A stretch of DNA of 64,000 bases, taken from the NCBI RefSeq assembly GCF_028502605.1, contig NW_026611593.1, forward strand, positions 806,001 to 870,000. The letters run 5' to 3'. A program made the position numbers and the translations under genes. The DNA comes from Trichoderma breve. Taxonomy: Eukaryota > Ascomycota > Sordariomycetes > Hypocreales > Hypocreaceae. This document shows, in pieces, positions 2,165-63,794 of this stretch (position 1 is the stretch's first letter; every line of letters starts with the position of its first letter). The notes under the pieces were generated by a model. That model saw only the letters and a list, made by a program, of their open reading frames with translations, ran no database searches and had not been told where the DNA came from.

Positions 2165-4546
2165 ATGGATACATCGCACCAGTGTCTTGTCGACGAGATT
2201 AAAAGACAGATACGCATCTTGGACTCCAATCCGAATGAGAATCAAAGAGCGCAACAGAAGAAGAAGTATCTAGGCATCATCGATGCTAGACAGCAAAATG
2301 CCTATCAACGATATCGTACTGATCTTCTCGCCCTACTTTCGAATCTAACCAGTGGTATGCACATACGCATTCCTATTGCGACATTTCCTCAAGCTAAGAT
2401 TAACTGGCCATGAGTACGCAGACTCCTTCCAGTCTAAAGCCGGGACCAAACCACCACCTCTACATCTCAACAACCTGTCTCTGTTCTGGCAAATACCGGC
2501 ATTTTGCGGCGATGCCATTGTTGTCGATCAAAATTACGCAAAGGACCGCAGCAAAGCGCTTCAAGACCATCGTGCAGCCAAAGACACCTATACTGCCGAT
2601 ATTTGGGAAAGACGCGAGCTGACGCAATGGATTTCTGGCCCGGAACCCTCTGTTCTAGTAGTTAAGGGCACTTCACAGTCTGCAGAGCGACTGGAGAAGT
2701 TCAGCGTTGAATTGGTAGACTACCTTCAGGGAAGGTGTCCAACTGTTTTCCTCCTCAGCCCATTACCGACCATCTTTTACGAAAACTCAACCTCTAGAGG
2801 CGTCTCCAGAGGCGATGATATCCTGCGCCAAATCGCTGGGCAATGCCTACAGACAATACCCTCGTCTGCTAAGAGTAACCTATTCTTTCTAGTTAATCAG
2901 GGACTATCTCTTCTGGCCAAGACGACATCCCACTTCCAGACCGCTTCTCATGAAGATTGGTTTTTAAGTATCGAAGCGGCTCTATCTCACCAAGAGCAAG
3001 TGTATATAGTTCTGGATATTTCGATTCTTCGCCAGCATTCTAGAGATGCATTTTCCTGGCCCGCTGAATTTTCGGATATGATCCACAAAGTTCAGAGCCA
3101 GAGAACAGACCTGAGAGTTATGATCCTGACTAGTCGGAGTATCGATGGACACCTTGGAGCCACAACTCGCATCATGTCAGTTGATATGGCGCCTCAATCT
3201 CCGCCGCATGTATACGATTTAGCTAAGTCTGAGAAAACAAGTCTCTTGTTTTCGCAGCCAAATAAACAACAGGTTCTCGTACCGCTACCGGCATCAACGA
3301 ATAATACTGAGACCACGAAGGAGACGTTTGCCCGGGATTCCACGCCGTCGGATCTAATTAACAGCAATCGAAAAGAAGAGCGCCAAAATTTAGTAGAGGG
3401 CACGCATAGAAGTAGCCTTGGAAGTTTTCAAGCTGCGGACTCTGGGGTGACGTACGACATCACATATTGTTCCCTTTCTTCGGCTTTTCCTGACTGACAA
3501 TCGGTAGCGAAGGATCGACCATATCATGGTTTAAGAACTTAACTTCGAAAACCCACGCTGCTATATATTCTTCTAGAAGCGCAAAAGACAACTCATTCAA
3601 GCCCGTCAAAATTGCCGTGCTAGATACCGGGTTCGCCTACACTGAAGAACATGACAAGAAGTCTTTGAAACCATATATGCACCGCATCAAGAAGTTTGCC
3701 AGCTTTGTCGAAGACGAGACAGATTTGGAAGCCATGAAAGATTCTTCAGGCCATGGTACAGCGGTCGCCGTGCAGATGCTCAAAGTTAGCCTCAGTACCG
3801 TTCTATACATCTGTCGCGTGGCCACGTCCAGCAAAGATGGCAGCCCAGAGCTCTTTCCCGACAAAGAGGCTGTAGAAAGAGCGATTAAGAAGGCTGTTGC
3901 GGAACCAGAGAAAGGTGGATGGGGTGTTGACATTATCAACATGTCCTTTGGGTGGGCGTTTGACGATCACGATGGTGTTAGAAACGCAATCCGATTCGCA
4001 CGCCGTCAAGGAGTTCACATGTTTGCTTCCACGTCAAACGATGGTCTGCTTGGTCCCCCAAATGACATCTTATATCCCTCTCGGGCGCCAGAAGTCATTG
4101 CGATAGATGCCGCTGACGGATTCGGCGAGTATACAAGAACAACCGCATCATCCGTGTCTTCATATGGCAGAGGCAGAAGGTTTAGTGCACCTGGTACAAG
4201 ACTTACAAGCCCCCATTCAGCGGCCCTCTACGATGGATCATCTTTTGCTTGTGCCATAGCTGCAGGTATAGGCGCTTTGGTACTGGAATTTGCAAGGCAG
4301 TCTCCCCTTCAAGCAAGCAAAACGGTGCAGAATAGTTTGAAGGAAATGTCAGCCATGATTGCCATACTTGAGCGAATGAGCGCCGAGAAAGGGCCTGATA
4401 GATTCAAGTTTCTCTTACCATGGACGCTTCTCGGTAAACCTGGACAGCCGAGAGAGTTTACTGCTTACAGCCTGGTGGATGAACTAAGAAATGAGTTTGG
4501 ACTTGCTGTTGGATCGGAAGTTTTCCCTTTAGAAGGAGAGAGTTGA
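2165..4546 (+). CDS. Intracellular subtilisin-like (S8) protease, HET-Q2-like
   Basis: Predicted serine endopeptidase without a signal peptide, so cytosolic. Exons are 2165..2354, 2422..3451 and 3508..4546, giving 752 aa. The last part is a subtilisin domain with the full triad in family motifs: D446 in AVLDTGF, H489 in SGHGTAV and S652 in DGSSFACA. Residues about 140-305 resemble a NACHT domain that has lost its key residues: VLVVKGTSQSAE sits where a P-loop would be, YIVLD (258-262) where Walker B would be, and MILTSR (297-302) follows. The gene converges on a gasdermin-like gene with only 101 bp between stop codons. That matches the fungal het-Q1/het-Q2 arrangement, in which the S8 protease cleaves and activates the gasdermin. 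The role here is inferred from context. Confidence 0.85.
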
Positions 4547-4647
4547 GGCAATTGGATAGAAACAAGCCTTGAATTAATTTTTATTCTTCAAACCTCGCTT
4601 GCTATTTCATCTTCTTCTGCCATTATAGACGGGTAAAAGCGTTAGGC

Positions 4648-5505
4648 TTAATCCTCCGATATCACACATTTGCAAAGTTCATCTCCAGGCGAAGACTCAT
4701 CTAGCGCATCTTTGCTGTCTAGCTGGAATTCAGACCCATCCACATCTTCATCGCTCTCAATATCCTCGGCAAAGATTGAGACTTGTGCATTTGACTCATC
4801 ATCTTCAACTTCTTTGATGCCGAGCATTGCTCCTTTGCTGTACTGTTCGTGACTGACCTCTCCCGACAACGACAATTTAATTCTTCGCAAACGGAAAGCA
4901 AAGACAAACGGATCGGCTCCGCCCTGCGATTGAGAGACTCGAATTTCGTCATTCCGAGAAAATTCAGGTCCAACATGGTTCCCTGTGAAACCTGACCCCA
5001 AGCGCAGAGCTATGCCTTTCTTCTTTACGTACTGCACGACGGACGAAGCACCGTAAGCGACTTTGATGCCGGTTATCATGTATAAGTTTGAGGCCCCAAA
5101 AGACGGCTTGTTTATCCGCAAAAAGCTCTGCACGCCATCGTCTTCTAGGCATTTGGTGATGTATGCTAGTTTCGGTGCGAAGGAGATTGTCTGCAACTTT
5201 TCGAAGGCCCATTGTTCGCTATGCTGACGGCTGTCTTCTAACGTTGCTTCTGCTTTTAGGCCTATGGTCTGTAGGAATGATGCCCAGATACCGATCCGTC
5301 CGCCGCTTTTCGCATTCACGTTGAATGTGTAATCATATTCATTATGCTCAGTAATCTCCATTGGGATGGAGCGCAAAGGAACCTGATTCTCATTGATGGG
5401 GTCATCAGCAAGTCTTGGGAGCGCGATAATATTGCCCAATTTGATCTGTCCGTTGAGGGGGTTTCCAATGGGCGCAAGGAAATAATGTTTCGGTCGTGGC
5501 CCCAT
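4648..5505 (-). CDS. Fungal gasdermin-like pore-forming protein (HET-Q1/RCD-1-like)
   Basis: Single-exon protein of 285 aa, close in size to known fungal gasdermins. The first ATG is at 5505; the frame is open slightly further upstream but without an ATG. Residues about 1-212 follow the gasdermin N-domain pattern: IKLGNII strand, two amphipathic hairpin-like stretches (about 57-90 and 142-172), the segment LYMITGIKV as in gasdermin VYVVTEV, and a closing strand FVFAFRLRRIKL. A short linker (213-230) leads to a very acidic tail (231-285), the likely autoinhibitory part removed by proteolysis. Known family members oligomerise in the plasma membrane and kill the cell. The convergent S8 protease supports the call. 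The assignment is by topology and context, not by a database search. Confidence 0.78.
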   Translation of the reverse strand: MGPRPKHYFLAPIGNPLNGQIKLGNIIALPRLADDPINENQVPLRSIPMEITEHNEYDYTFNVNAKSGGRIGIWASFLQTIGLKAEATLEDSRQHSEQWAFEKLQTISFAPKLAYITKCLEDDGVQSFLRINKPSFGASNLYMITGIKVAYGASSVVQYVKKKGIALRLGSGFTGNHVGPEFSRNDEIRVSQSQGGADPFVFAFRLRRIKLSLSGEVSHEQYSKGAMLGIKEVEDDESNAQVSIFAEDIESDEDVDGSEFQLDSKDALDESSPGDELCKCVISED

Positions 5506-5950
5506 TTCAGCAAAGCAAATCAACAATAAATACGATTATTAACGCCGTGGTATGCCTGAATACTCACTCAGGTATACTCAAAGTGTTTTTATGACATGGT
5601 AGAATAGTTACTCCGCACCTACGAAACACCGAGAGTCCAATCAATTCGCATGGAGCACAAGGGTCCCGAGAGCCCCCAACTGTATACGTCTCTAGCGGCC
5701 GTACTATAAGCACCTCGCATCTGCCTACGCTACCTGGATGTCGGATCAGACCAATAGCACATATATTTTGCCTATGGTACCTACATGAACGTTGTGGAAG
5801 CCTAACAGGTACCCAGTAAGTAGGTGTGTCGCATGTAAGCACTCCGCACATGGGATGCATGAGATTTAAGCTGCGGGGGCATCTACATATACCATCAATC
5901 ACTTGAACCTCGCAATACACTCAACTAGTCATCCTGAACTTTCACATACT
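5506..5950. promoter_or_regulatory. Shared divergent promoter of gasdermin and AAA+ ATPase genes
   Basis: These 445 bp separate the start codons of the minus-strand gasdermin and the plus-strand AAA+ gene, so they must hold both promoters. An open frame on the minus strand at 5564-5920 shows no recognisable protein features and is not called. Co-regulation of the two genes is an inference. Confidence 0.5.
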
Positions 5951-8900
5951 ATGCCTCCACCACCTCCTCGGCGACAGCAACGCCCGGTTGGCAGAGAGAG
6001 GAAATCGAGATTCAATTCGTCAAAAGGCCAAGCTTCTAGGGATGACAAAGCTGCGTCAGTGAGCGGAGATGCGAGTGATTCAAATAGCTCAAGTGGTAAA
6101 TCATGTACCTGTGCTTTCTGTCTCATACGGCACTATTAATACGTGAATACTAGACTTTAATGACACACCGTCCTCGCGCTCGAAACGGGAGCTTCCCACA
6201 TATCGTCCTGTGCTGACGATCGATTGGCGAGCGGAGATGTGCCGGCTTCTAGATTTGTCTTCACAGATCTCGGACGAAGATCTTTTTGAAGCGATAGAGG
6301 TTGCGTCACAGAGTCTCAAAGAATTCGAAATTTTGAAGTCCAAGGGAACAGAGAAACTCGGACCTCCCCGATCCCAGATCATTCATTCAGTTCATTGCCA
6401 CGCTACTGGCGATAAACCTCAGTTATATCTTGAACAGCCGTGGGCTGTTGAGGATGGTCCACTTCTCCATCTTAGAGGTAGCAAAGCCATCAATAATTTC
6501 GACCTTTTTCTTGAGAGAAACAAAGAGGTTGCGTTCATTATTTATAAAGATTACGAGTGTTGTGATGGCGTTCCATCTACAACCAGTAAGAGCAAGATTG
6601 AGCAGGGACTGGAGGTTGATGCCTCGGTTTTTTTAATTGGAGAGCACATTCAACTCATATCAGTCGATTTGAAACTAGCGCTGGAGAGTCTTGCTAGCAA
6701 AGTATTCGATGGGATACCTCACCCGTTCTCGGAGGAGAAAGATTACCCGAGTATTGAGAGTATGGATAAAAGGATGCCTCCCCAGTTCTTGAGAGAGAAG
6801 GACAACCGGAGTATCGAGTACCCTTACATGTTCTTGTTCCATCGCCGCAAAGAGGTCGAAGAAGTGACAACGAAACAACCACATGATGCACAGATATATC
6901 TTGATGTGTTCTTCAATTATCTCTTTAGCCGCATGGCAGAAGAATGGGCAATTGTCGACCAATTACTAGTTCAAAAGAAGATTTCTGCTAAATACTTGGA
7001 CTACCTCTTTGTGAGTAGCTTCAAAGATGCACTATCGGCCTATCTCATCAGACACTCACCTTTCAGGTTCCCAACCAAATAGTTTTGATGCAACGAAGAG
7101 ACATGGATACCGCACAGGCCAAAGCATATGTTCTTCAGGATTGGCTCCAAAGACCATCTGAACACGGTTCTACACCAATGGTCCCAGTGTACACTTGGGA
7201 ATTCGACGGGAATTTTTATAAGTCTTTCAGTGACCTCTCTATCGAAGATCTCCCATCTGAAACCGGAAACTTTCCTATTACCGACATGTCAGTGTATCCA
7301 ATTGAGTTTGCTAGCAAAGAGGTTGTGGGTGCCCTGAGAAAGCGCGGACATATGTTTTGGAAGTGCCGCGAAAGGCACTACGTGTCGTATAACGGGAAAA
7401 CAGACCATGCGATACAAAGTTCGGTAAGTTGGAGAGACTAAAACGTCTCTTTATGCGTGCTTATGTGTGCATGCAATACTTGCTTCTATCGTTTACTAAT
7501 AAATGTCTTTCTATAGATGGATTCTCGATTTATGATCGATATCGCCACTTATAAACAGATGCACCGCAATCAGGACAATGAAGTCGAACAACGCTCATCT
7601 GATCGGGAAGAACTACCGATCAAACTCCTTTCTGAGGACAACCCCATGCTAGGAGACACTTTCTTCTTGTGCCTGCCTACTTCGATAGCCGGGTTTAACA
7701 TGCAGACAAAGGAATGGAGTGCGTATCACTTTGGCTCATTTAGTCTGACAACACATTTTTACATGGCGAGTACTAATATCTTGGCAGTCAACCTGAACGT
7801 ACACTATATAGAAGATGTGGTCTGGAATACTGAAGCATTTGAGTTCCTTGTCATCGACCAGGGAACTAAAAGCATGATCCAAGCCGTAGTTACGAACCAA
7901 CTTCACGCTTCCCAGAATACGGACCTCATCCGTGGTAAAGGTAATGGGTTGTTTATTTTACTCCACGGGTAAGATTACCGGACATTCTGAAGAGGCACAT
8001 GCAGCCGATCGAAGCTAATATGATCAATAGTGGCCCTGGAACTGGCAAGACCTTGACTGCGGAAAGGTATTTCAGAGTCAAAATGATCCATATAAACTTG
8101 GTACTGATGACTTCAAGTGTCGCAGAAATAGCAAAGAAGCCTCTGTATAGAGTGACGTGTGGAGACATTGGTACAAGCGCCCAAGATGTCGAAAATGTAT
8201 GAATGCTGCCTACGAAACACGATCAGATGAGATCTAACTATGTACAGTATCTCGAGATTGTTCTACACCTCGGAAAGACTTGGGGTTGCGGTAAGATGAC
8301 AAAGTACTTTTCACTTCGTCTTGATTCTGACCATAATCTCTTACAGTTGTCTTGTTGGATGAAGCGGACGTTTTTCTACAACAGCGAGAACTTTACAATC
8401 TTGAACGGAATGCCCTGGTTTCCGTCTTTCTTCGAGTCCTGGAGTACTATGATGGTGATAACAGCTCTTATGAACTGCAAGCAAAGGTAACGGCTAACTT
8501 TCATCTTAGGAATTCTGATCCTGACAAGTAACCGCGTTGGCATCTTTGATGAGGCTTTCAAATCACGCATCCAACTTAGCTTGCGCTATAAGAGCCTAGA
8601 TAGAGGTCAACGGCTACAGATATGGATAAACTTTTTGAAGCGGTTGGAGCAACTCGAGAGTGAGCGTCTCGATGCTGAGAGGCGGGGCGACAAAAAAGAT
8701 TCCACGATGCTGGGTTATGGGATCAACGTTGATGAGATAAAAGAAAAATTGGAGGAATTGGCAGACGAAAGTATGAATGGTCGTCAAATTCGGAACACGA
8801 TATCGACGGCACGCCAATTGGCCATGTATCAGCGCAAAAAGCTGAGTTACGAACATATTCAGGCTGTGATTGACGAGGCGAACAAGTTTGACGAGTACTT

Positions 8901-8961
8901 GCTTGAATTGAACAAGGGGTATTCAGCAGACGAGATACAGCGAGACAAGAAGGAGAGATAG
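5951..8961 (+). CDS. AAA+ ATPase, fungal multi-exon family
   Basis: Protein of 819 aa from ten exons: 5951..6095, 6154..7010, 7067..7423, 7517..7718, 7788..7968, 8031..8066, 8118..8196, 8248..8290, 8347..8454 and 8510..8961. All joins keep phase, and the joined frame passes through every AAA+ landmark. Start ATG is MPPPPPRR. The long N-terminal part is the uncharacterised region typical of these fungal ATPases, ending near EDVVWN just before the core. Core motifs: Walker A GPGTGKT (582-588), Walker B VVLLDEAD (634-641), sensor-1 ILTSNR, arginine-finger region FKSRIQL, and an AAA lid with NGRQIRN. The substrate is unknown. The gene is divergent from the gasdermin gene. The 69-nt fourth intron has no in-frame stop, so a retained form is possible. 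Confidence 0.88.
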
Positions 8962-21863: not shown

Positions 21864-24800
21864 ATGGACGTCCTAGGGCTTCTAGCCAATATATCTCAGG
21901 TCGTTGACCTCCTCGTCAAGATCGGTGTCATGTGCTCCATCTATTGTGTGGACGTCAAAAAGGCTCCCGGCGATGTGCGAAGACTACTAAAGGAGGTTGA
22001 CCGACTAACGGCCGTCATCAAAGAGCTTGAGAGCCTTCTTCAAAGCCCGAAAGGATCTTCCAAGCTACAATCTCCGAGCCTCCGCCAGGCAGTTTTCGAC
22101 CTTCACAGGCTCCTAGCAGAGATGGTGGCAAAGCTAGATCTGGGAGCCAAGCATGCCAGAGCTGTGTGGCCTTTCAAAAAGCGAGAGATTCACGAGATCT
22201 TTGCAACAATTGAGAGACAGAAGACTAATATTTTGTTGAATATCAACATTGAACAAACGTAAGATATTCAGTCCCCTTCCTCCTAGTGGCTATTGTTATA
22301 GCCACCAGCTGCTACTAGCTACTATGACTACCATGACTACCATGGCTACTTGGTCTATTCGATCTATCTGAGCTATCTGAGCTATCTGAGCTATCTGAGC
22401 TATCTGAGCTATCTGAGCTATCTGAGCTATCTGAGCTATCTGAGCTATCTGAGCTATCTGAGCTATCTGAGCTATTCCATTTACTTGGGCTACTTGGGCT
22501 ATTCGAGTTCTCAATTCTAACAGTAACCAGGTCGGTCCTTTTAGATGTTCACCAAGAGATTGTTCTATCCAAGCTACGAATTGCAGACGCGGCTACCTTC
22601 GATTCCAGTGCAGACGGGGAGCAATCTTTCTGCCTGGAAGGCACTCGGAGTCACATTATTGCCCAAATAGAGGAATGGGGCACCAACTCAGACAGCCAGT
22701 CAGTCTTCTGGCTCAACGGCATGGCAGGGACAGGAAAATCTACCATTTCCCGCACAATCGCACAATCTTTTGCGAATAAGAATATACTAGGTGCTAGTTT
22801 TTTCTTCAAGAGAGGTGGAGGTGATCGCAGCGGAACGAATTTCCTCATTACGACAATCGCCGCCCAGCTGGTCCGCCGAATTCCTTCCATTGCTTCACGA
22901 ATCCGTGAGGTTCTTGACTTCGAACCTCAAATTCACGAAAAACCTCTGGGTGATCAGTTCCAAAAGCTGATTTTAGATCCACTGAAAAACACTCCGGGAT
23001 GTTGGTCATCAAGTTTGCTTATTGTGGTCGACGCTCTCGACGAATGCGGCAATGAAGAGAATATGAGGACACTGATCGGCATTTTCTCAAAGGCTCAACA
23101 GAGCAATGACCCAAGGCTAAAAATCTTTCTCACAAGCAGACCCGAACTGCCCATTCGGCTCGGATTTGAGGAGATTAGTGGGAAATATGATCATCTGCTC
23201 CTCGCGACAGTGCCAAAAGCTACTATTGAGCATGATATAGGGCTGTTCATGAGACATCAACTTAATGTGATCAAAATGGATTACAACAAGTCTGTCTCAA
23301 TACATCGCAAAATATCTACCGGCTGGCCTGGCGATGATGTTGTGCAACAACTTATCGACTCAGCCGTCCCGTTATTTATTGTTGCCGCAACAATATGCCG
23401 CTTCTTGAAAGATAGAAGGCTAGGAGGCCCTCAGCATCAATTAAGCAAGATTCTCGAGTATCAAAAAATGCACATATCCGGTCTTGATATGACATACCTT
23501 CCGATTCTGGACAACCTTATTGCCGACCTTCCTCTGTCTGCCAGGAAAGAAGTGTTGACTAGATTCCAGTATTTAATTGGTTCAATAATCACACTTGCTC
23601 AGCCTTTGTCTATACGAAGCCTCGCCGATCTTCTGGGGATTTCTACAGACGCTATCGAAGATCAACTTGACCTTTTACATTCAGTACTTGGGGTTCCTAC
23701 TGACTTAGATACCCCTGTGAGACTATTGCACCTTTCTTTCCGAGATTTCCTGGTTGACTCTGAAAAGAAGCTTAATCTCAGCAAATATCCTTTCTGGGTA
23801 GATGAATCCGAGGCTCACTCAAAGCTATTCTCTCAATGCATCAAGTTATTGTCTACGGACGGCGTCCTCAAAGAAGACATTTGCTTTCTTAGAAGTCCAG
23901 GCACACTAAGATCCGATATAAAACAAAATGCTATTGATGAGCATCTACCTGGTGCAGTCCAATATGCTTGCATATACTGGGTCCATCACTTGAGTCTGAG
24001 CAGCCTCTGGATTTGTGATAATGACCAAACACACAAATTCTTGGCGAGCTACTTACTCAATTGGCTTGAAGCACTCAGCATAATGGGCCGGATTACAGAG
24101 AGCGTTCACATGATGGATGACTTGCTCTACAAACTCGAGGTAAGCGTTTACATAATTATTATAGGTAAAGCTAACCAAACATTTGAAAGGAAAAAAACGC
24201 ACAAGACATCGGAAACCTTATACGGGACGCGAAACGATTCATTCAAACAAATGTAGCAACATTTGACAAAGCGCCACTCCAAATATATTCTTCCGCCTTA
24301 ATATTCGCACCAGAGAAAAGCATTGTAAGGAGCGTGTTCAAATCAAGTATACCAACTTGGCTCTATTCCCTACCATCGATGCAATCCCACTGGGATCCAT
24401 GCTTAGCTACATTCGAGGACCAAAACATGAGGGATGCCGATGTTATAGCGATTCATGGCGGTGATAGATTCCTTTCTTATCCCGGACGTGAAGGAGAAAT
24501 GAAGATTTGGGATGCAAGAACACTGTCATGTGTTGCCATATACGAAGATGTTATGTATAAGTCTGTCAGGGTATCATCTGATGGCGCAGAAATACTATAC
24601 ATCTCCAGGAGCAAAGGTCTCCAAATTATGGATGCCTCAACAAGAAGTTGCATTGCGGAGTACAACGGCCATACCGACGAGATACGTCGTGCCATGTTTT
24701 CAGCGGATGGCCAATACCTTGCTTCAGGGTCAAAAGACGGAACCTTAAGAATATGGAGCAGAGCATCTGGCGAGATCACCTCAACTCATAATCATGATCA

Positions 24801-26673
24801 CACTGATCAGATGGAGGGATTTTCTCCAGATGGATTGACATTTCTAACGATTTCGAATTACAACAGTCTTCGGCTTCTTAGTTCAAGGATAAGCGGCCAT
24901 ATGTTGACGATGAACGGTCACAAAGGACGTATTAGAGCTGCTGTATTTTCTCCAAACAGCCAAATATTAGTGTCTCTTGATTCGAGCAATATAATAATAT
25001 TTTGGGACAGGCTATCTGGCAATACTCTGGAAGCTGAAGGAGCCAATTATATCGTTAACAGAGGTTTGCTGTTCTTTTCTGACGGACTCCGCGTCATTAC
25101 TGCCATGATAGCAAGTGTCGAGAAGGGGCATGCGATTGGCATCTGGAATACCTTAAGAGCAACTTGCGATTCTCTCTTGGAAGGCCATCGCGCTGCCATA
25201 TCAGATGTTGTCCTATCAGAGGATGAAAGCAAGATTGCCTCAGGTTCATATGACAAAAGTATCAGAGTATGGGATATGAATACGGCGACTTGTATCGCGA
25301 TATACGACGGTCATGCTGAGAGTATTGTCAGCCTCATTTATTCGGCTGATGAAACGCTACTCATATCCGTGGATTTTAATGGAACCTTCAAAGTCTGGGA
25401 TACCAGCATTGAAACGCAGTGGGGGGAGATTGAGAGCCATGAAGGCGCAGTCCTCGAAGTTGTGTTTTCTCCAGACAAAAAGACGATTGTAACTACTTCT
25501 GGAGACCGCACGGTGCGACTATGGGATTCAACTACAGGTAAATGTCTGTCGATGGGCACAGGCCACCGAATTTTTGCTTGGATTCCCTTGATGGTTCCTC
25601 AAGATATTCCTACGGCTCCTTTCGATCATATCATGAGTTCTCGTGGACTCTTTGGCTTTCCAAGATCGATTGAATTTTCGGCAGACAGCTCGACAATTTT
25701 ATCCTCAACTGATGGTTCGGAAGCTTTCAGCATTAAACTTTGGAACGCAGCAAACGGCGACTGCCAGTTGTTGTCCGACGAATTCACGGGCTCTATTCTA
25801 TCAATTGCATTTTCACCTGACGGTACAACCGTAACATCAACGTCCAGGGATGGTATCATGAGGTACTGGGACACGACGACGCAGAAACTTCTTGCTTCAT
25901 TCGGAGGAGGAACCTACAGTATATCTTCATCAATCTACACAGTAGATGGCACCCAGCTCGTTCTCGCCTGCGACGATGGAATGGTCCGTTTGCTCCATCC
26001 TTCAACTAGAAATTGCAAGGAAATGAACGAGGCACATGATAGCCCCGTGATGATTGTTACAATGTCGGTAAGCGGATCCAAGCTTGCTTCTAACGCAAAG
26101 TCAAAAGTCAAAATTTGGGACGCAGACGCCGGAACATGCATCGCCAATTATACTTCAACATCAGATACTACAAGCAACATAAGCAAACTGCTTTTCTCTC
26201 CTGATGAACAATACCTTGTCGTTCTGTACGAAGCTGGGGAAATCAAGATTGAGATTCTGAGTGTCGCAACAGGACACTGCCTTGATAAGCTCGTTGGGAT
26301 TTGTGGGCTTGCCAACCACATGGCATTCGATTCATCTGCCGGTTCCAGCCTACGAGTAATCACCAATGTGGGCACCCTTGAATTTGACCCGCCTGGCTCA
26401 GCTACCTGTGTTCATGCAAGGTCATCCTTCAGCAGCCAAAGGGCGGTAAATACGATTGGACTTGGTCTCAGCAAAGACGGGGAATGGATTACGTGGGACT
26501 CGCGCAACATGCTTTGGCTGCCATCCGCATTCAGAATCTCAGCATCAGATATCGATGTCGCGGGGTCTCTACTCGCTCTTGGATCTCGACTCGGACGGCT
26601 GCTCCTGATAGGGGTCGACCCGTCCAAAATGCCGGTTAACGTTCTGGACGCCTCACCGCGGCCCTTGGCCTAG
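21864..26673 (+). CDS. NLR: HeLo-like / NACHT / WD40 STAND protein
   Basis: Exons 21864..22258, 22531..24139 and 24190..26673 give 1495 aa. Residues 1-130 resemble the HeLo-like (HELL/PF17111-type) domain of fungal death proteins: MDVLGLLANISQVVDLLVKI, a helical middle and WPFKKREIHEIFATIER. The NACHT domain follows, with Walker A GMAGTGKST (195-203) and Walker B LIVVDALDEC ending at C304, then FLTSRPELP. The C-terminal 800 residues are roughly 14 WD40-type blades (for example GHTDEIRRAMFSADGQYLASG and DGTLRIW). The architecture is that of fungal incompatibility NLRs such as HET-E relatives: WD40 senses, NACHT switches, HeLo-like executes at the membrane. The WD repeats are well diverged from each other. 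Intron 1 holds a 9-bp minisatellite. Confidence 0.92.
22364..22471 (+). repeat. 9-bp minisatellite inside the NLR first intron
   Basis: Twelve perfect head-to-tail copies of CTATCTGAG fill 108 bp of the 272-bp intron 22259-22530. Degenerate CTAC/CATGA-type repeats flank it on the left and TACTTGGGC pairs on the right. It is not a CRISPR array, having no spacers. Confidence 0.97.
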
Positions 26674-40617: not shown

Positions 40618-42671
40618 TTACTCTTCGCCATTCAACATCTCCATTGCCGTGATCCTCTTCTCCGCCAACTGAGCCAGCCGAGCAGTCGTGACAGGTTGTC
40701 CGCTCTTCATGTTCAACAGTCGAGCACTCTTGATCAAATTCTTGATCTCACGACCATTCAACCTCAACTCTGCTAGTTGATCGTAGTCTTCCTCGGCAAC
40801 TTTGAACCGTGTCTCGCCGCCGGCGCGATTGATGAAGTTCTGCCAGACTTGGCGGCGGGCAGTCGTGGTGAGGTCGCTATATGGGAGGAAGAGATCCACG
40901 CGAGACTGGAAAGCATGGTCCAGACTCGAGGCGCGGTTGGTGGTCAGGAAGAGGATGCCCTGGTAGTATTCGAGCTTGGTAAGGAAGATGGAGACTAGCT
41001 CGTTGCGTGCGAGAGTGTCTTCTTTTCGAGCACTTAGGAACACGTCTGCTTCATCGAGGAGCAGCATTGCGTTCCAGAGACGACAGAGCTCAAGAGCTCG
41101 GTCTAAAGATGCTTCGACTTCGTTTGGCTTGGTTCCTAGAGCGCCGGCACTCATAGCATAGAGAGGAACTCGGCCCTTCTCTGCCACGGCCTCTGCCGTG
41201 TATGTCTTTCCAACGCCTGGGGGGCCAAACATGAGGATAATAATACCGCGACCCTTGTCAGTGACAAAGTCGTCAAAGTCCGAGTTTGCAAAGTTCTTGT
41301 TGTCGATAAACGACCAAGCAAGCTCTTTCTCATCTCCAGGAAGGACCAAGTTCGAGAACGCATCATCGTTCCAGACGATATCCTTCATCTTCTCCACGAG
41401 GAACAAACCCCACTCCTTGGCCTTGAGATCAAAACCGTTGACCCAGGGCGTGCAAAGGAGGCACTGCTCGTCAGTGAGAGGAGTGAGATCTTCCTTGCGC
41501 TCAAGCCTCGTCTCAGAACTCTTGACTGTGAGTTTGAGCTCGTCAATGGCAGCTTCTTCCTGGGAGGACGAGCTGTTGGTGCTTGCGTCGGAGCCGCGGC
41601 GGGGGCGGCGGACTTTGTAACCATCTTCGTCTTCGCTAGATTCGTCTGCCTTGGGCTTTTCTTCGGAATCGAGAGGGCGGAGGTTTGGCTTGACCACCTT
41701 GCAGCTGGCGTAGTAGGCAAAAGCATCGACAACAACTCGGCCGGAAGCCTAGGGGCGTGGGATGTTAGAAGAATGTATTGACCTGTGCCACGGATTCAAG
41801 GACTTACTGGTTCTTCTTCCTTTGCGTTGCCTCTTATGACAATCTTCCTACCTTCGTACTGCATAAAGTGATATGTCCTCAATTCCTCAAACTGACGACC
41901 GCGGGCGATCATCTTGGCCTTGATTGCATCCGGGTCACTGTCAAAGGAAATCGGCCAGGTAGGAAGCAAATGAGCTCGGCGATAGCCATCGTAACCACCA
42001 ATCTTGGTCTTCATCGTCGTAAAACCGCATTTGTCACCGTTCCAGTCGACATACTCCATGTCAATGACCCAATATGCAGGGCAGGAGTAACTTTCTTCAA
42101 CCTTGTGATGTTTGAGAACGCGGCAAATGGCGTCCTGGCCGTACATCTTGGTCATGACAAGCTCTCCAGGAGGAAAGATTTGCCAGAGAAAGTCGAACTG
42201 AACTTTGCCCGTGAGACGAGTCTGTTCGAGAGAATTGACCGACGGACCAACAATGGGAAGTAGAAATTCGATCAGCTGCTGGCCAGCCTTGGTCAATTCA
42301 GGATTCGAAGTGCTCTGGCAAAAATCTTGGAGTCGCTGCCATCGATGGACAAGAGGTATGTATGGAGAGCGAAAAGTCCAGTTCTCGCACTCCAAATCGA
42401 GGTCTTGATAGTGTTCGAGGACCTCTAGGAGAATCTTGCGCATGAAGGGACTGTTGATGGTGAAGGACTCGGTGATCCAAGAAGTGCCACAGTGAATAAA
42501 GCGGTGGACGATGGGCATCTGGGTCATCTGTTTCTCCAGTGCAACCTGGTGGTCTTCTTCTGAGTCGAACTGCGACCAGTGCACGAAGCCTTGCTGGTAG
42601 AGCTTTGTGACAACAGAAGACGGTTCCTCCTTGGGGGCCACCAAGGCCACGGCTGCGTCGGTAGAAGACAT
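40618..42671 (-). CDS. AAA+ ATPase, fungal family with long N-terminal domain
   Basis: Two exons, complement(40618..41748, 41808..42671), 664 aa from the ATG at 42671 (MSSTDAAVAL). An in-frame ATG at 42752 would add 27 residues and cannot be excluded. The N-terminal half is the uncharacterised region of these fungal ATPases (FLWQIFPPGELV, YWVIDMEYVDWNGDKCGF). An acidic Ser-rich linker follows, then the AAA+ core: Walker A GPPGVGKT (463-470), Walker B MLLLDEAD (516-523), sensor FLTTNR, arginine-finger region FQSRVDL. It is related in layout to the ATPase at 5951-8961 but has only one intron. Substrate and location are unknown. Confidence 0.88.
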
Positions 42672-43909
42672 TGTGGATTTTGAGTGGTTTGCTTTTCTTT
42701 CTCTTTGGTAGACAGAATCTGGAGAAAAGAGTCCCCGTGGTTTTACATACATTTATTGAAGATTTTAGAGAGAAAGTTCAAATTGTGTTTTCGTTGTCGC
42801 AGTGAGGTCCATCTGAGAAGGCGAAGTCCCCACTAGCTTCAAGTGAATTGGAGTTGATGTCGATTGCAAACATTTCTACCAGAGAATTCAACAAATTTAT
42901 ATATCCTTCAATTACTATAACGCACTCTCAATTACACGGATAACCAACACGGATAATGATCAAAAAATAGTGGAGAGTACGGCAGTTCAGCTTGCCACAA
43001 ACCGAGCCGGGCCATGGCATTCCTAGGTTTGCTAGGCAGCCATCGCGATTCTGGCCAGTCAGACAACAGCACAGCTACGGAACAAATCTCTATACGTGTA
43101 TTTCGGCCTTTTATACCGTGACTTGATCGTACTATCGCGAGTCTGACTTGATATATCACTGTCTTTGTGGTACTGAAGCCTAGACTCAGCTGTCTTGACG
43201 GATCGTGCGAGCAAATCAGGGTTCAAGAAACGGATCCCTTGAGTCGGCGTTGACTCGATTTGGCACTTACAGTATACTCCAGGTATAGTTACTGGGTAGA
43301 GTAACCACACTTGTTGCCTTGAGCGCATTAGGATACTATTTGATAGAATAGATATAAGGCGCAATGGGGAAGCACATGCTGCATCACTAGTTACATGTAG
43401 CCAAACGGGCACAAACTGCAAAGGCGGCATCAAATTAATAGCCACACGCGGTTACTACGTGTCTTGATATATCTGGTGAATCACGCGTATCTTGAGCCAA
43501 TCGAAAGTGCAAGCTGCAGTTCTCTGGATCCTGTCGCGATGGCTATACGAGTGATTGGCTGCTCGATTCTCAGTCGCGTCACTCACCAAGAGGTCCCGTG
43601 TGGTGGTGAATTGCCCGATAGGCAGGGAGCCGGCATTTCAAGAAACTGAGTCCATGTCTCGGTATGAGTCTCAAAGAGAAAATTATCCTCCGCGGAAAAC
43701 GGACATCAAGGTTGATGCTGCACGGTTGTAAGACGAGATTAGGCAGCCGCCCGAGCTTGAAGCTATCCAGATCCCCAGCCACCTCTTATACAAACGTTTA
43801 ACTTGAGGACCGTTATTTCCGTCGGCACTTCTCTGTATTGTCATTCACGGCTCGGTACTTGATGGCATATGCAAGAATAAGCTCTCCGTGTCTTGGATTC
43901 TGGTTCCAT
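42672..43909. other. Intergenic 1.2 kb
   Basis: Start of the accessory region. A 128-codon minus-strand frame at 43059-43445 shows no domain or intron support and is not called. Nothing else was recognised. Confidence 0.5.
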
Positions 43910-61775: not shown

Positions 61776-63794
61776 ATGGAATCGACCACACTTTCCTTGA
61801 GACCGGCAACGACAGCGCCAGTCAGACAAAAGAGGCAGCGGTCTGAGTCTGACAGCAGCACCGACCAGGGTAATCAATCTCAATCCAGAAGATCTCGGCG
61901 ACGGTTGGACAATCTTTCGTGCAGAATATGCGCATTAATGCTCTCTCATGAAGGCCTGAAGTCTCTCAACTCATCTGATGGATTCTGGCATCGGAATCGG
62001 ACTGCTTGCAAAGCCTCTGCTGATGCAAGGTGTGGATTGTGTAAATTAATTTTATTCGCCGTCTGCAGCGAGCATGACGAGGATTGGGCTTGTGAACAAC
62101 GTCTCATCTTTCGAAATTCTCGACTTCCGCGATCTTTGTCCACTTGGCCGAACAGTCAACAAATGGGACTATATGGGCTTCAATGCAGTATCGAATCTGA
62201 GCCCACAAAACCCATTATTACCATTCAATTATTTGCTAAAAAGGGTGAGCATTCGTTCCATAAAGTGTGGGAAACTACAATCTGACAAGATATAGACGAT
62301 CCCATCGCAGAAATTGTGCGCCAGAGGCCCCTTCGCAGAAATGTCGGGAGCAGCAATGCATTTGCCGCAGCAAGGGCTCTCATCAAAAATTGCATGAATC
62401 CCAAGAATCCCCACAAGCATTGTCAATATTCTCGAGACACCGTCCTTCCATTGCGAGTTCTCGATGTTGGCCAACCAGGAGACCCTCACCCAACAGTCAA
62501 ACTGAAGATCAATGATATGGACACCCGTGCCAAATACCTGGCTTTGAGCTATTGCTGGGGAGAGCAACTCGGCCCTACAGCGAAATCACTTCAGCTACAG
62601 AAAAATAATCTCAATCAACTGGTTGCTGGTATCGAATTGGGGAGTCTTCAACAATCCATACAAGATGCCATTTTTGCCACTCGCAAACTAGGCTTTCGGT
62701 ATCTTTGGATTGATGCCCTTTGTATCATCCAAGACTGCGCTAAAGATAAGGAAACAGAGATTTCACGCATGGCATCCATCTACAAGAACGCTTCCGTGAC
62801 TATTGCGGCATCCTCCTCAGAAAATGCAGCACATGGATTCCTAACCCAGAAGAAACAACCTTATTATCCAGACTATGAAGTCCGTATTCCAATGGCGAAT
62901 AATGTTACAGGCACGGTGTATCCTTCAACAGGTCCCTACGAGCCCGATCATCCTTTAGACAAGAGAGGGTGGACATTACAAGAGTTCATGTTATCATCAA
63001 GAATGTTGATATTCTCCGACTACGAGCTTTTATGGCAGTGCAAAGAAGTGGATCTTCGGAGCGTTTCTGCAAGAGGGCTCGAGTATCTTCAACTATTGGA
63101 AAGTCTCCCATGGACCGTTTTTGATAATGGCGCAGAACCCTTATATGGAAGTCACGAAGCTGAGAAACTTTATCTCTGGATGACCATTGTTCGGCAGTAC
63201 ACAGGTCGCGAGCTGACAAATACGGATGACAAACTCAACGCAGTCATGGGCATAACCTCTGAACTTGAAACGCTGTGGCGTGATATAAATATCTATGGAC
63301 TCTGGAAGAAATGGTTTATAGACCTTCTAGCTTGGCATAAACCGGATATTGGAAGAGAAGAAAGACGAAACCTCAAACGGGCGCCAAGTTGGTCATGGGC
63401 ATCTCTGGATGGTGCGGTCGTCTATGAAGGGCCCATCACCTCTAAAGATGCCGCAGTCAAGTTCTTGACTATGCAGACAGCAGTATTGACATGCCGTATG
63501 CTGAAAGTAAATGAAGTAAAAAAGGACAAGGTCAACACGATAGTAGAGGGCACGGATCTCGAGTTTCCTGAGGCAGAACTCCAAGAGACGGGGTTGAGTT
63601 TTGACGATGTGGAATATTTGTTGTTGGGAGCAGTACAAATAGGCGCTGATACTGAGAAAGGCAAAGGGTTGCTTGTGATTGATGTTAGCGGAGGATTTTA
63701 TCGGCGGATTGGACTGGCTAACTTTGAGGACATGGGGATATGGGAAGGCGTCAATCGGCGAGACATTACATTTGAGGCGAGGATCAGTAACTAG
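61776..63794 (+). CDS. HET-domain protein (heterokaryon incompatibility type)
   Basis: Exons 61776..62244 and 62296..63794 give 655 aa from ATG 61776. The N-terminal 157 residues are basic then Cys-rich (SCRICALML, ARCGLCKLIL). The HET domain is complete: YLALSYCWG (237-245), WIDALCIIQD (294-303) and RGWTLQE (380-386), with ISRMASIYKNASVTIAA between. Many HET proteins are death effectors or sensors at het loci, but most paralogues are uncharacterised and this one has no visible sensor or STAND domain. The C-terminal region contains RAPSWSWASLDG, common in this family. The gene is divergent from the SNF2-RING gene. Confidence 0.93.

What the first reader, a model, noticed from the sequence alone, without database searches (positions are those of the whole stretch)
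2165..5505. Convergent subtilisin-protease and gasdermin-like gene pair
A cytosolic S8 protease with a full triad ends 101 bp from the stop of a 285-aa protein with gasdermin N-domain topology and a short acidic tail. In Podospora, HET-Q2 (S8) cleaves HET-Q1 (gasdermin) to cause cell death, and fungal gasdermin genes commonly sit beside protease genes. This locus looks like an independent case of that toxin-plus-activator pair.
Basis: partly seen in the sequence, partly recalled or inferred. Interest (0 to 1): 0.9.

Follow-up and report, generated by a model that had tools for sequence, protein, structure and literature searches.

The report
Fungal gasdermin with its activating protease
This stretch of a Trichoderma-like mould genome carries a pore-forming cell-suicide protein next to the protease that probably switches it on, a known kind of fungal immune gene pair, here with an unusual sensor region on the protease that looks like a worn-out immune-receptor domain.

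Summary
Window 4648-5505(-) encodes a 285-aa fungal gasdermin: its profile matches the solved RCD-1 (E 9e-25) and HET-Q1 (E 1e-8) pores. Convergent to it, 2165-4546(+) encodes a 752-aa S8 subtilase with complete Asp446/His489/Ser652, no hydrophobic N-terminus; 101 bp separate the genes. The genome is Trichoderma-like.

The pairing is not chance: 6 of the 9 gasdermin loci found in this genome have an S8 domain within 0.9 kb, and the pair recurs in other Trichoderma and in Fusarium.

It is a new member of a known kind; reviews report that about 80% of fungal gasdermin genes sit beside a protease gene.

Beyond that: (1) the unannotated N-terminal half of the protease resembles a NACHT domain lacking its nucleotide-binding residues (hhalign 92%; single-sequence searches do not see it) and diverges faster than the catalytic domain; (2) the gasdermin tail is conserved, with Phe260 (45 of 48) a candidate cleavage residue and a near-terminal Cys (42 of 48); (3) the five other gasdermin-linked S8 genes found carry DUF7580 instead. 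No structure could be predicted (tool off).

The parts
4648..5505 (-). fungal gasdermin gene, 285 aa, no intron
4813..5505 (-). gasdermin pore-forming domain (about residues 1-231)
   Evidence: profile match to RCD-1 and HET-Q1 pore chains spans profile positions 12-231
4651..4812 (-). acidic C-terminal tail, residues 232-285, inferred inhibitory segment
   Evidence: 21 acidic, 2 basic of 54 residues; conserved Asp254 48/48, Gly257 41/48, Phe260 45/48, Cys278 42/48
4726..4728 (-). codon of Phe260, favoured candidate P1 residue for cleavage (prediction)
   Evidence: 45 of 48 rows have Phe; P1 of HET-Q1 is reported as Phe238 (PMC10989679, passages)
4672..4674 (-). codon of the conserved near-terminal Cys278
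   Evidence: 42 of 48 rows; Cys in the last 14 residues of 6 of 6 S8-paired and 0 of 4 unpaired paralogues
2165..4546 (+). S8 protease gene: exons 2165-2354, 2422-3451, 3508-4546; 752 aa
2601..3152 (+). degenerate NACHT-like domain, about residues 124-307
   Evidence: hhalign against 19 NACHT domains of the same genome, 92% probability, score 49.3 against at most 21.6 in 100 column shuffles; not seen by hmmsearch
3605..4318 (+). Peptidase_S8 catalytic domain, residues 440-677; Asp446 3623-3625, His489 3752-3754, Ser652 4241-4243
   Evidence: PF00082 E 2.4e-21; triad checked
4547..4647 (.). 101-bp gap between the two convergent stop codons
   Evidence: sequence

Best explanation
A two-gene cell-death unit of the HET-Q1/HET-Q2 type. 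The gasdermin is made as an inactive protein held back by its acidic tail. The S8 protein is the sensor and activator: its N-terminal half, a fast-changing region with a degenerate NACHT-like fold, keeps the protease quiet until an intracellular trigger (virus, other non-self or damage; unknown) is felt. The protease then cuts the gasdermin tail, most likely after Phe260, the freed N-terminal domain oligomerises in the plasma membrane and kills the hyphal compartment. Shown here: gene structures, catalytic residues, gasdermin homology, tail conservation, and conserved linkage. Inferred: autoinhibition, cleavage, pore formation, trigger. Because both genes sit in one genome, the protease must be controlled, unlike HET-Q1/HET-Q2, which reviews describe as alternative genes at one locus.
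For: Profile homology to RCD-1 and HET-Q1 pores. Complete triad. 6 of 9 gasdermin loci in the genome have an S8 domain within 0.9 kb; with 36 S8 loci and random placement, 5.7e-13 for a 1.5-kb limit chosen after the fact. Orthologous genes linked elsewhere: N5P37_006310/006311, FANTH_1551/1553, HZ326_26707/26704 by locus tag, and three more gene pairs sharing a longest-contig length. Tail conserved. Window versus 13 Trichoderma S8 orthologues: NACHT-like part 70-83% identical, catalytic domain 89-97%, as expected of a sensor joined to a conserved effector. Proteolytic activation of HET-Q1 by HET-Q2 is reported in PMC10989679 and PMC12881547 (passages).
Against: No cleavage, pore or death assay; no predicted structure. 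3 of 9 gasdermin loci have no S8 nearby, so pairing is not obligatory. RCD-1, the best match, is reported to work without proteolysis (PMC12881547, passages). Phe260 is conserved but its role as P1 is a guess; Phe245 would leave 40 residues as in HET-Q1 but is Phe in only 3 of 48 rows. The random-placement figure ignores that some loci may be duplicates of one another.
Confidence: 0.87

Rival explanations
1. The gasdermin is not controlled by the neighbouring S8 protease; it works like RCD-1, by meeting an antagonistic allele after cell fusion, and the protease is a linked but independent protein.
For: Best structural relative is RCD-1, which is reported to act without cleavage (PMC12881547, passages). 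Two tail-less gasdermins in tandem without S8 exist in this genome (C2 locus), so that mode is plausible in the family.
Against: The window gasdermin has a long conserved tail, and in this genome long tails ending in a Cys motif go with an S8 neighbour (6 of 6 versus 0 of 4, post hoc, small numbers). Linkage persists between Trichoderma and Fusarium.
Confidence: 0.08
2. The 285-aa protein is a pore protein used for something other than death, for example unconventional secretion, with the S8 protease regulating release.
For: PMC12881547 lists secretion as a possible role of these clusters (passages).
Against: No sequence feature here points to secretion; not tested.
Confidence: 0.04
3. Chance neighbours: an unrelated subtilase and an unknown protein.
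For: No Pfam family for the 285-aa protein.
Against: PDB profile matches, repeated pairing within the genome, linkage in other species.
Confidence: 0.01

Closest known systems
HET-Q1 / HET-Q2 of Podospora anserina
   Same: Gasdermin of about 280 aa (278 against 285) with a short C-terminal segment, and an S8 serine protease; HET-Q1 pore chain 9uv9 matches the profile, E 1.2e-8.
   Different: Reviews describe het-Q1 and het-Q2 as alternative genes at one locus and HET-Q2 as 388 aa (PMC12881547, PMC10989679, passages); here both genes sit together and the protease is 752 aa with a large N-terminal region.
RCD-1 of Neurospora crassa
   Same: Closest gasdermin of solved structure (8jyz, E 9.3e-25).
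   Different: RCD-1 is activated by co-existence of two allelic variants, not by cleavage (PMC12881547, passages). The window protein has a conserved acidic tail.
Q2L proteases: sensors clustered with fungal gasdermins (ANK, TPR, WD40, NLR types)
   Same: A multidomain S8 protease gene next to the gasdermin gene.
   Different: In the reported NLR type the protease is N-terminal (PMC9815663, PMC12881547, passages). Here it is C-terminal, behind a NACHT-like region without a P-loop lysine. Section 15 of PMC10197012 (read whole) says annotated architectures cover about a third of roughly 1500 Q2L sequences, so this type may sit among the unannotated ones; the original survey (Clave et al. 2022) was not held.
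Bacterial gasdermin operons
   Same: Gasdermin beside a protease gene (reported in PMC10197012 and PMC12881547).
   Different: Sequence match to bacterial gasdermins is not significant (8sl0 E 0.07, 7n51 E 0.087).

Membership tests
fungal gasdermins (fGSDM) | Sequence homology to RCD-1 / HET-Q1 over the pore domain | tested here: met
   RCD-1 9.3e-25, HET-Q1 1.2e-8, spanning profile positions 12-231
fungal gasdermins (fGSDM) | Gasdermin fold | not testable with these tools
   Structure prediction switched off
fungal gasdermins (fGSDM) | Short inhibitory C-terminal segment removed by proteolysis | tested here: inconclusive
   A conserved acidic tail of 54 residues is present; inhibition and removal not tested
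fungal gasdermins (fGSDM) | Membrane pore formation and cell death | not testable with these tools
   needs experiment
Q2L (HET-Q2-like) proteases | S8 domain with complete catalytic triad | tested here: met
Q2L (HET-Q2-like) proteases | Gene within 10 kb of a gasdermin gene | tested here: met
   101 bp, convergent
Q2L (HET-Q2-like) proteases | Cleaves the neighbouring gasdermin | not testable with these tools
   needs experiment
NACHT / NLR proteins | Recognisable NACHT (NPHP3_N) domain by curated profile | tested here: not met
   No NACHT or NPHP3_N match at E <= 10 in 16 of 16 orthologues; hmmsearch with 19 NACHT domains no better than shuffled decoys
NACHT / NLR proteins | Remote profile similarity over the whole NTPase core | tested here: met
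   hhalign 91.7%, 163 columns in register, controls far lower; also with Trichoderma rows alone 75.6% and Fusarium rows alone 83.4%
NACHT / NLR proteins | Walker A GxxxxGK[ST] | tested here: not met
   The P-loop position reads G[TND]SQS... in 18 of 18 rows

The most novel reading that the evidence does not exclude
The protease is a pseudo-NLR: a C-terminal S8 protease controlled by a NACHT-derived domain that has lost nucleotide binding, so sensing works by direct binding or bait-like release instead of ATP-driven oligomerisation. With the DUF7580-S8 proteins of the same genome, this would show that one gasdermin-cutting protease domain has been coupled to unrelated, rapidly changing sensors, and that the gasdermin tail with its Phe and Cys motifs is the common interface.
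Probability: 0.4. Interest if true: 0.6.

Novelty: new member of a known kind. Interest (0 to 1): 0.4.

Why it matters
What triggers fungal gasdermin proteases is called an open question in the review PMC12881547 (passages). This pair offers a compact case in a non-pathogenic, genetically workable genus (recalled): a defined sensor region, a candidate cleavage residue and several natural paralogues with different sensor domains in one genome. If the NACHT-like reading is right, it adds a receptor type whose switch cannot be ATP-dependent. As a gene pair in itself it is ordinary for fungi.

Tried and rejected
Chance neighbours: rejected. CHAT (caspase-like) partners: 3 CHAT matches in the genome, none near any of the gasdermin loci found. 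A Pfam identity for the N-terminal half of the S8 protein: none in 16 of 16 orthologues; one row had a weak SNF5 match at 0.048, taken as chance. PDB search with the whole S8 profile: 112 chains, 60 shown, and in those 60 the best stretch lay in the protease part.

NACHT reading, results against it: hmmsearch with the NACHT profile scored the real proteins at most 5.4 bits while one shuffled decoy got 9.3; hhalign against the single NACHT gene of this window gave 0.1%; a C-terminal piece of the same S8 proteins (678-752) gave 19% against the NACHT set, the highest of the unrelated pieces. Only 19 of 30 fetched NACHT loci entered the profile, those where a script found a P-loop. The query profile used 18 rows: the window and 17 of the S8 orthologues found. 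hhalign E-values are for one comparison.

Rows dropped: alignment A1 holds the window and 47 of 57 gasdermin hits (ten short or long ones left out); A2 holds the window and 15 of 16 hits (P0068, 414 aa, left out). The tail comparison 6 of 6 versus 0 of 4 was thought of after seeing the tails. In one search one paralogue row was the wrong frame; it was corrected. The linkage in other species rests on locus-tag numbers or on equal longest-contig lengths for 6 of 57 gasdermin rows; for the other 51 no statement can be made.

Full report
What is there. The window lies in a 38.55-Mb genome in 9 contigs, at contig C7:806001-870000. The best gasdermin relatives are Trichoderma proteins (93% for an unnamed one, 89% T. 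harzianum and Trichoderma sp., 84% T. velutinum), and the S8 relatives too (82% T. lentiforme over the N-terminal 430 residues), so it is a Trichoderma close to T. harzianum; calling this the Harzianum clade is from memory. On the plus strand, 2165-4546 encodes a 752-aa S8 subtilase in three exons. On the minus strand, 4648-5505 encodes a 285-aa intronless protein. They converge with 101 bp between the stop codons.

The gasdermin. The single sequence hits no Pfam family, but phmmer finds RCD-1 in the PDB (1.2e-7), and a profile of the window and 47 of its 57 homologues finds RCD-1 (9.3e-25) and the HET-Q1 pore (9uv9, 1.2e-8), with bacterial gasdermins below significance (0.07, 0.087). It is a member of the fungal gasdermin family by sequence. 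The C-terminal 54 residues are strongly acidic (21 D/E, 2 K/R) and conserved: Asp254 in 48 of 48 rows, Gly257 in 41, Phe260 in 45, Cys278 in 42. HET-Q1 is reported to be cut after Phe238, losing 40 residues (PMC10989679, passages). Two candidates follow: Phe260, favoured by conservation, and Phe245, which would leave exactly 40 residues but is Phe in only 3 of 48 rows.

The protease. Asp446, His489, Asn584 and Ser652 are all present and invariant in the 16-row alignment; the N-terminus is not hydrophobic. In front of the catalytic domain lie about 430 residues with no Pfam match in 16 of 16 orthologues. By eye the order of motifs (W..REL..W....VLVV.G.SQS...LE; ILRQIA.QCL; V.IVL; LRVMILTSR) follows fungal NACHT domains. 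A profile of 18 sequences of this region against 19 NACHT domains taken from the same genome gave hhalign probability 91.7%, score 49.3 over 163 columns in register, against at most 21.6 in 100 column shuffles, 14.9-16.7 for reversed profiles, and 0.1-0.4% for most other segments or families, though a C-terminal S8 piece reached 19%. Trichoderma rows alone (75.6%) and Fusarium rows alone (83.4%) gave the same register. Single-sequence style hmmsearch did not see it, one shuffled decoy scoring higher than the real proteins, and the single NACHT gene of the window did not match. I take the relation as likely, not proven. The P-loop lysine is absent in 18 of 18 rows. Against the window, the NACHT-like part is 70-83% identical in 13 Trichoderma orthologues while the catalytic domain is 89-97%, lower in 13 of 13.

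Is the pairing meaningful? Searches with four different gasdermins found 10 gasdermin genes at 9 loci in this genome (a fifth query, added none); counts are lower bounds. Peptidase_S8 gave 43 pieces, merged to 36 loci. Six of the 9 loci have an S8 domain 181-854 bp from the gasdermin match. Five of these pairs are convergent like the window (C7, C6, C5, C1, C3); the sixth (C7:2.89 Mb) is tandem. Under random placement with a 1.5-kb limit chosen afterwards, 6 of 9 has a probability of about 6e-13, ignoring shared ancestry of the loci. Of the other three loci, one has a DUF7580 gene without S8 (C6:1.41 Mb), one a WD40-repeat-like frame (by eye; C3:3.99 Mb), and one holds two tail-less gasdermins (C2:0.26 Mb). 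No CHAT match lies near any of them. In other species the orthologous pair is linked in T. harzianum (N5P37_006310/006311), F. anthophilum (FANTH_1551/1553), F. oxysporum f. sp. albedinis (HZ326_26707/26704), and, by equal longest-contig length only, T. velutinum, F. pseudocircinatum and F. phyllophilum.

The five other gasdermin-linked S8 genes carry DUF7580 in front of the protease. So within one genome the same effector pair is joined to at least two kinds of N-terminal region; the window has the rarer kind here (1 of 6).

Mechanism. Best reading: the tail holds the gasdermin inactive; the N-terminal half of the S8 protein senses an unknown intracellular trigger; the protease cuts the tail; the pore domain oligomerises and kills the cell. 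The pieces shown are gene identity, catalytic residues, tail conservation and linkage; the rest is inferred from HET-Q1/HET-Q2.

Known or new. PMC10197012 (section 15 read whole) states that about 80% of fungal gasdermin genes cluster with protease genes, about 63% with S8 and 19% with CHAT, and that some Q2L sensors are NLRs; PMC9815663 and PMC12881547 (passages) place the protease at the N-terminus of those NLRs. PMC10989679 (passages) reports up to 23 rcd-1 homologues in Trichoderma strains. The kind is therefore known. I found no description of a degenerate NACHT region in front of an S8 protease in searches of the held library (listings only); the primary survey, Clave et al. 2022, was not held, so it may be listed there.

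Verdict: a real, well-supported, new member of a known kind; moderate interest from the sensor region, the tail motifs and the natural set of paralogues.

Noticed in passing
own genome C3:106-110k (L012), C5:1041-1045k (L010), C1:6924-6928k (L011), C7:2892-2895k and others: DUF7580 genes and a zinc-finger-like gene family sit together: 12 of 16 matches of one such protein lie within 6 kb of a DUF7580 match (18 DUF7580 loci), 11 of the 12 head to head. Six of the 9 gasdermin loci have this gene within 5 kb, not the window's. The zinc-finger label is by eye; Pfam gives only zf-C2H2_4 at 0.02. A library search for DUF7580 found 0 papers. It could be a third part of many gasdermin and other defence clusters.
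   Followed up: partly
own genome C2:256362-259760 (L015): Two tandem gasdermins with almost no tail (4 and 6 residues past the point where the others have 43-60) and no S8 match near, reminiscent of RCD-1.
   Followed up: partly
own genome C6:1411128-1412792 (L013): A gasdermin directly downstream of a DUF7580 frame on the same strand with no S8 match between or near: a sensor gene that may have lost its protease, or another mode of control.
   Followed up: no
   Followed up: no
window 22721-26670 (+): NACHT (NPHP3_N, 2.1e-22) frame followed by a WD40 frame, an NLR-like gene or two exons of one.
   Followed up: no
window 62316-63791 (+): HET-domain gene (PF06985, 8.1e-32), another incompatibility family, 57 kb from the gasdermin.
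   Followed up: no
window about 5950-8961 (+): Gene next to the gasdermin on its 5' side: ATPase-like with a fungal AAA lid domain (PF23232, 1.9e-11 at 8581-8958). No link to the pair is known to me.
   Followed up: no
window 40618-42752 (-): AAA ATPase frame (4.9e-17) with a DUF7025 frame just upstream (1e-22), similar in kind to the gene at 5950-8961.
   Followed up: no
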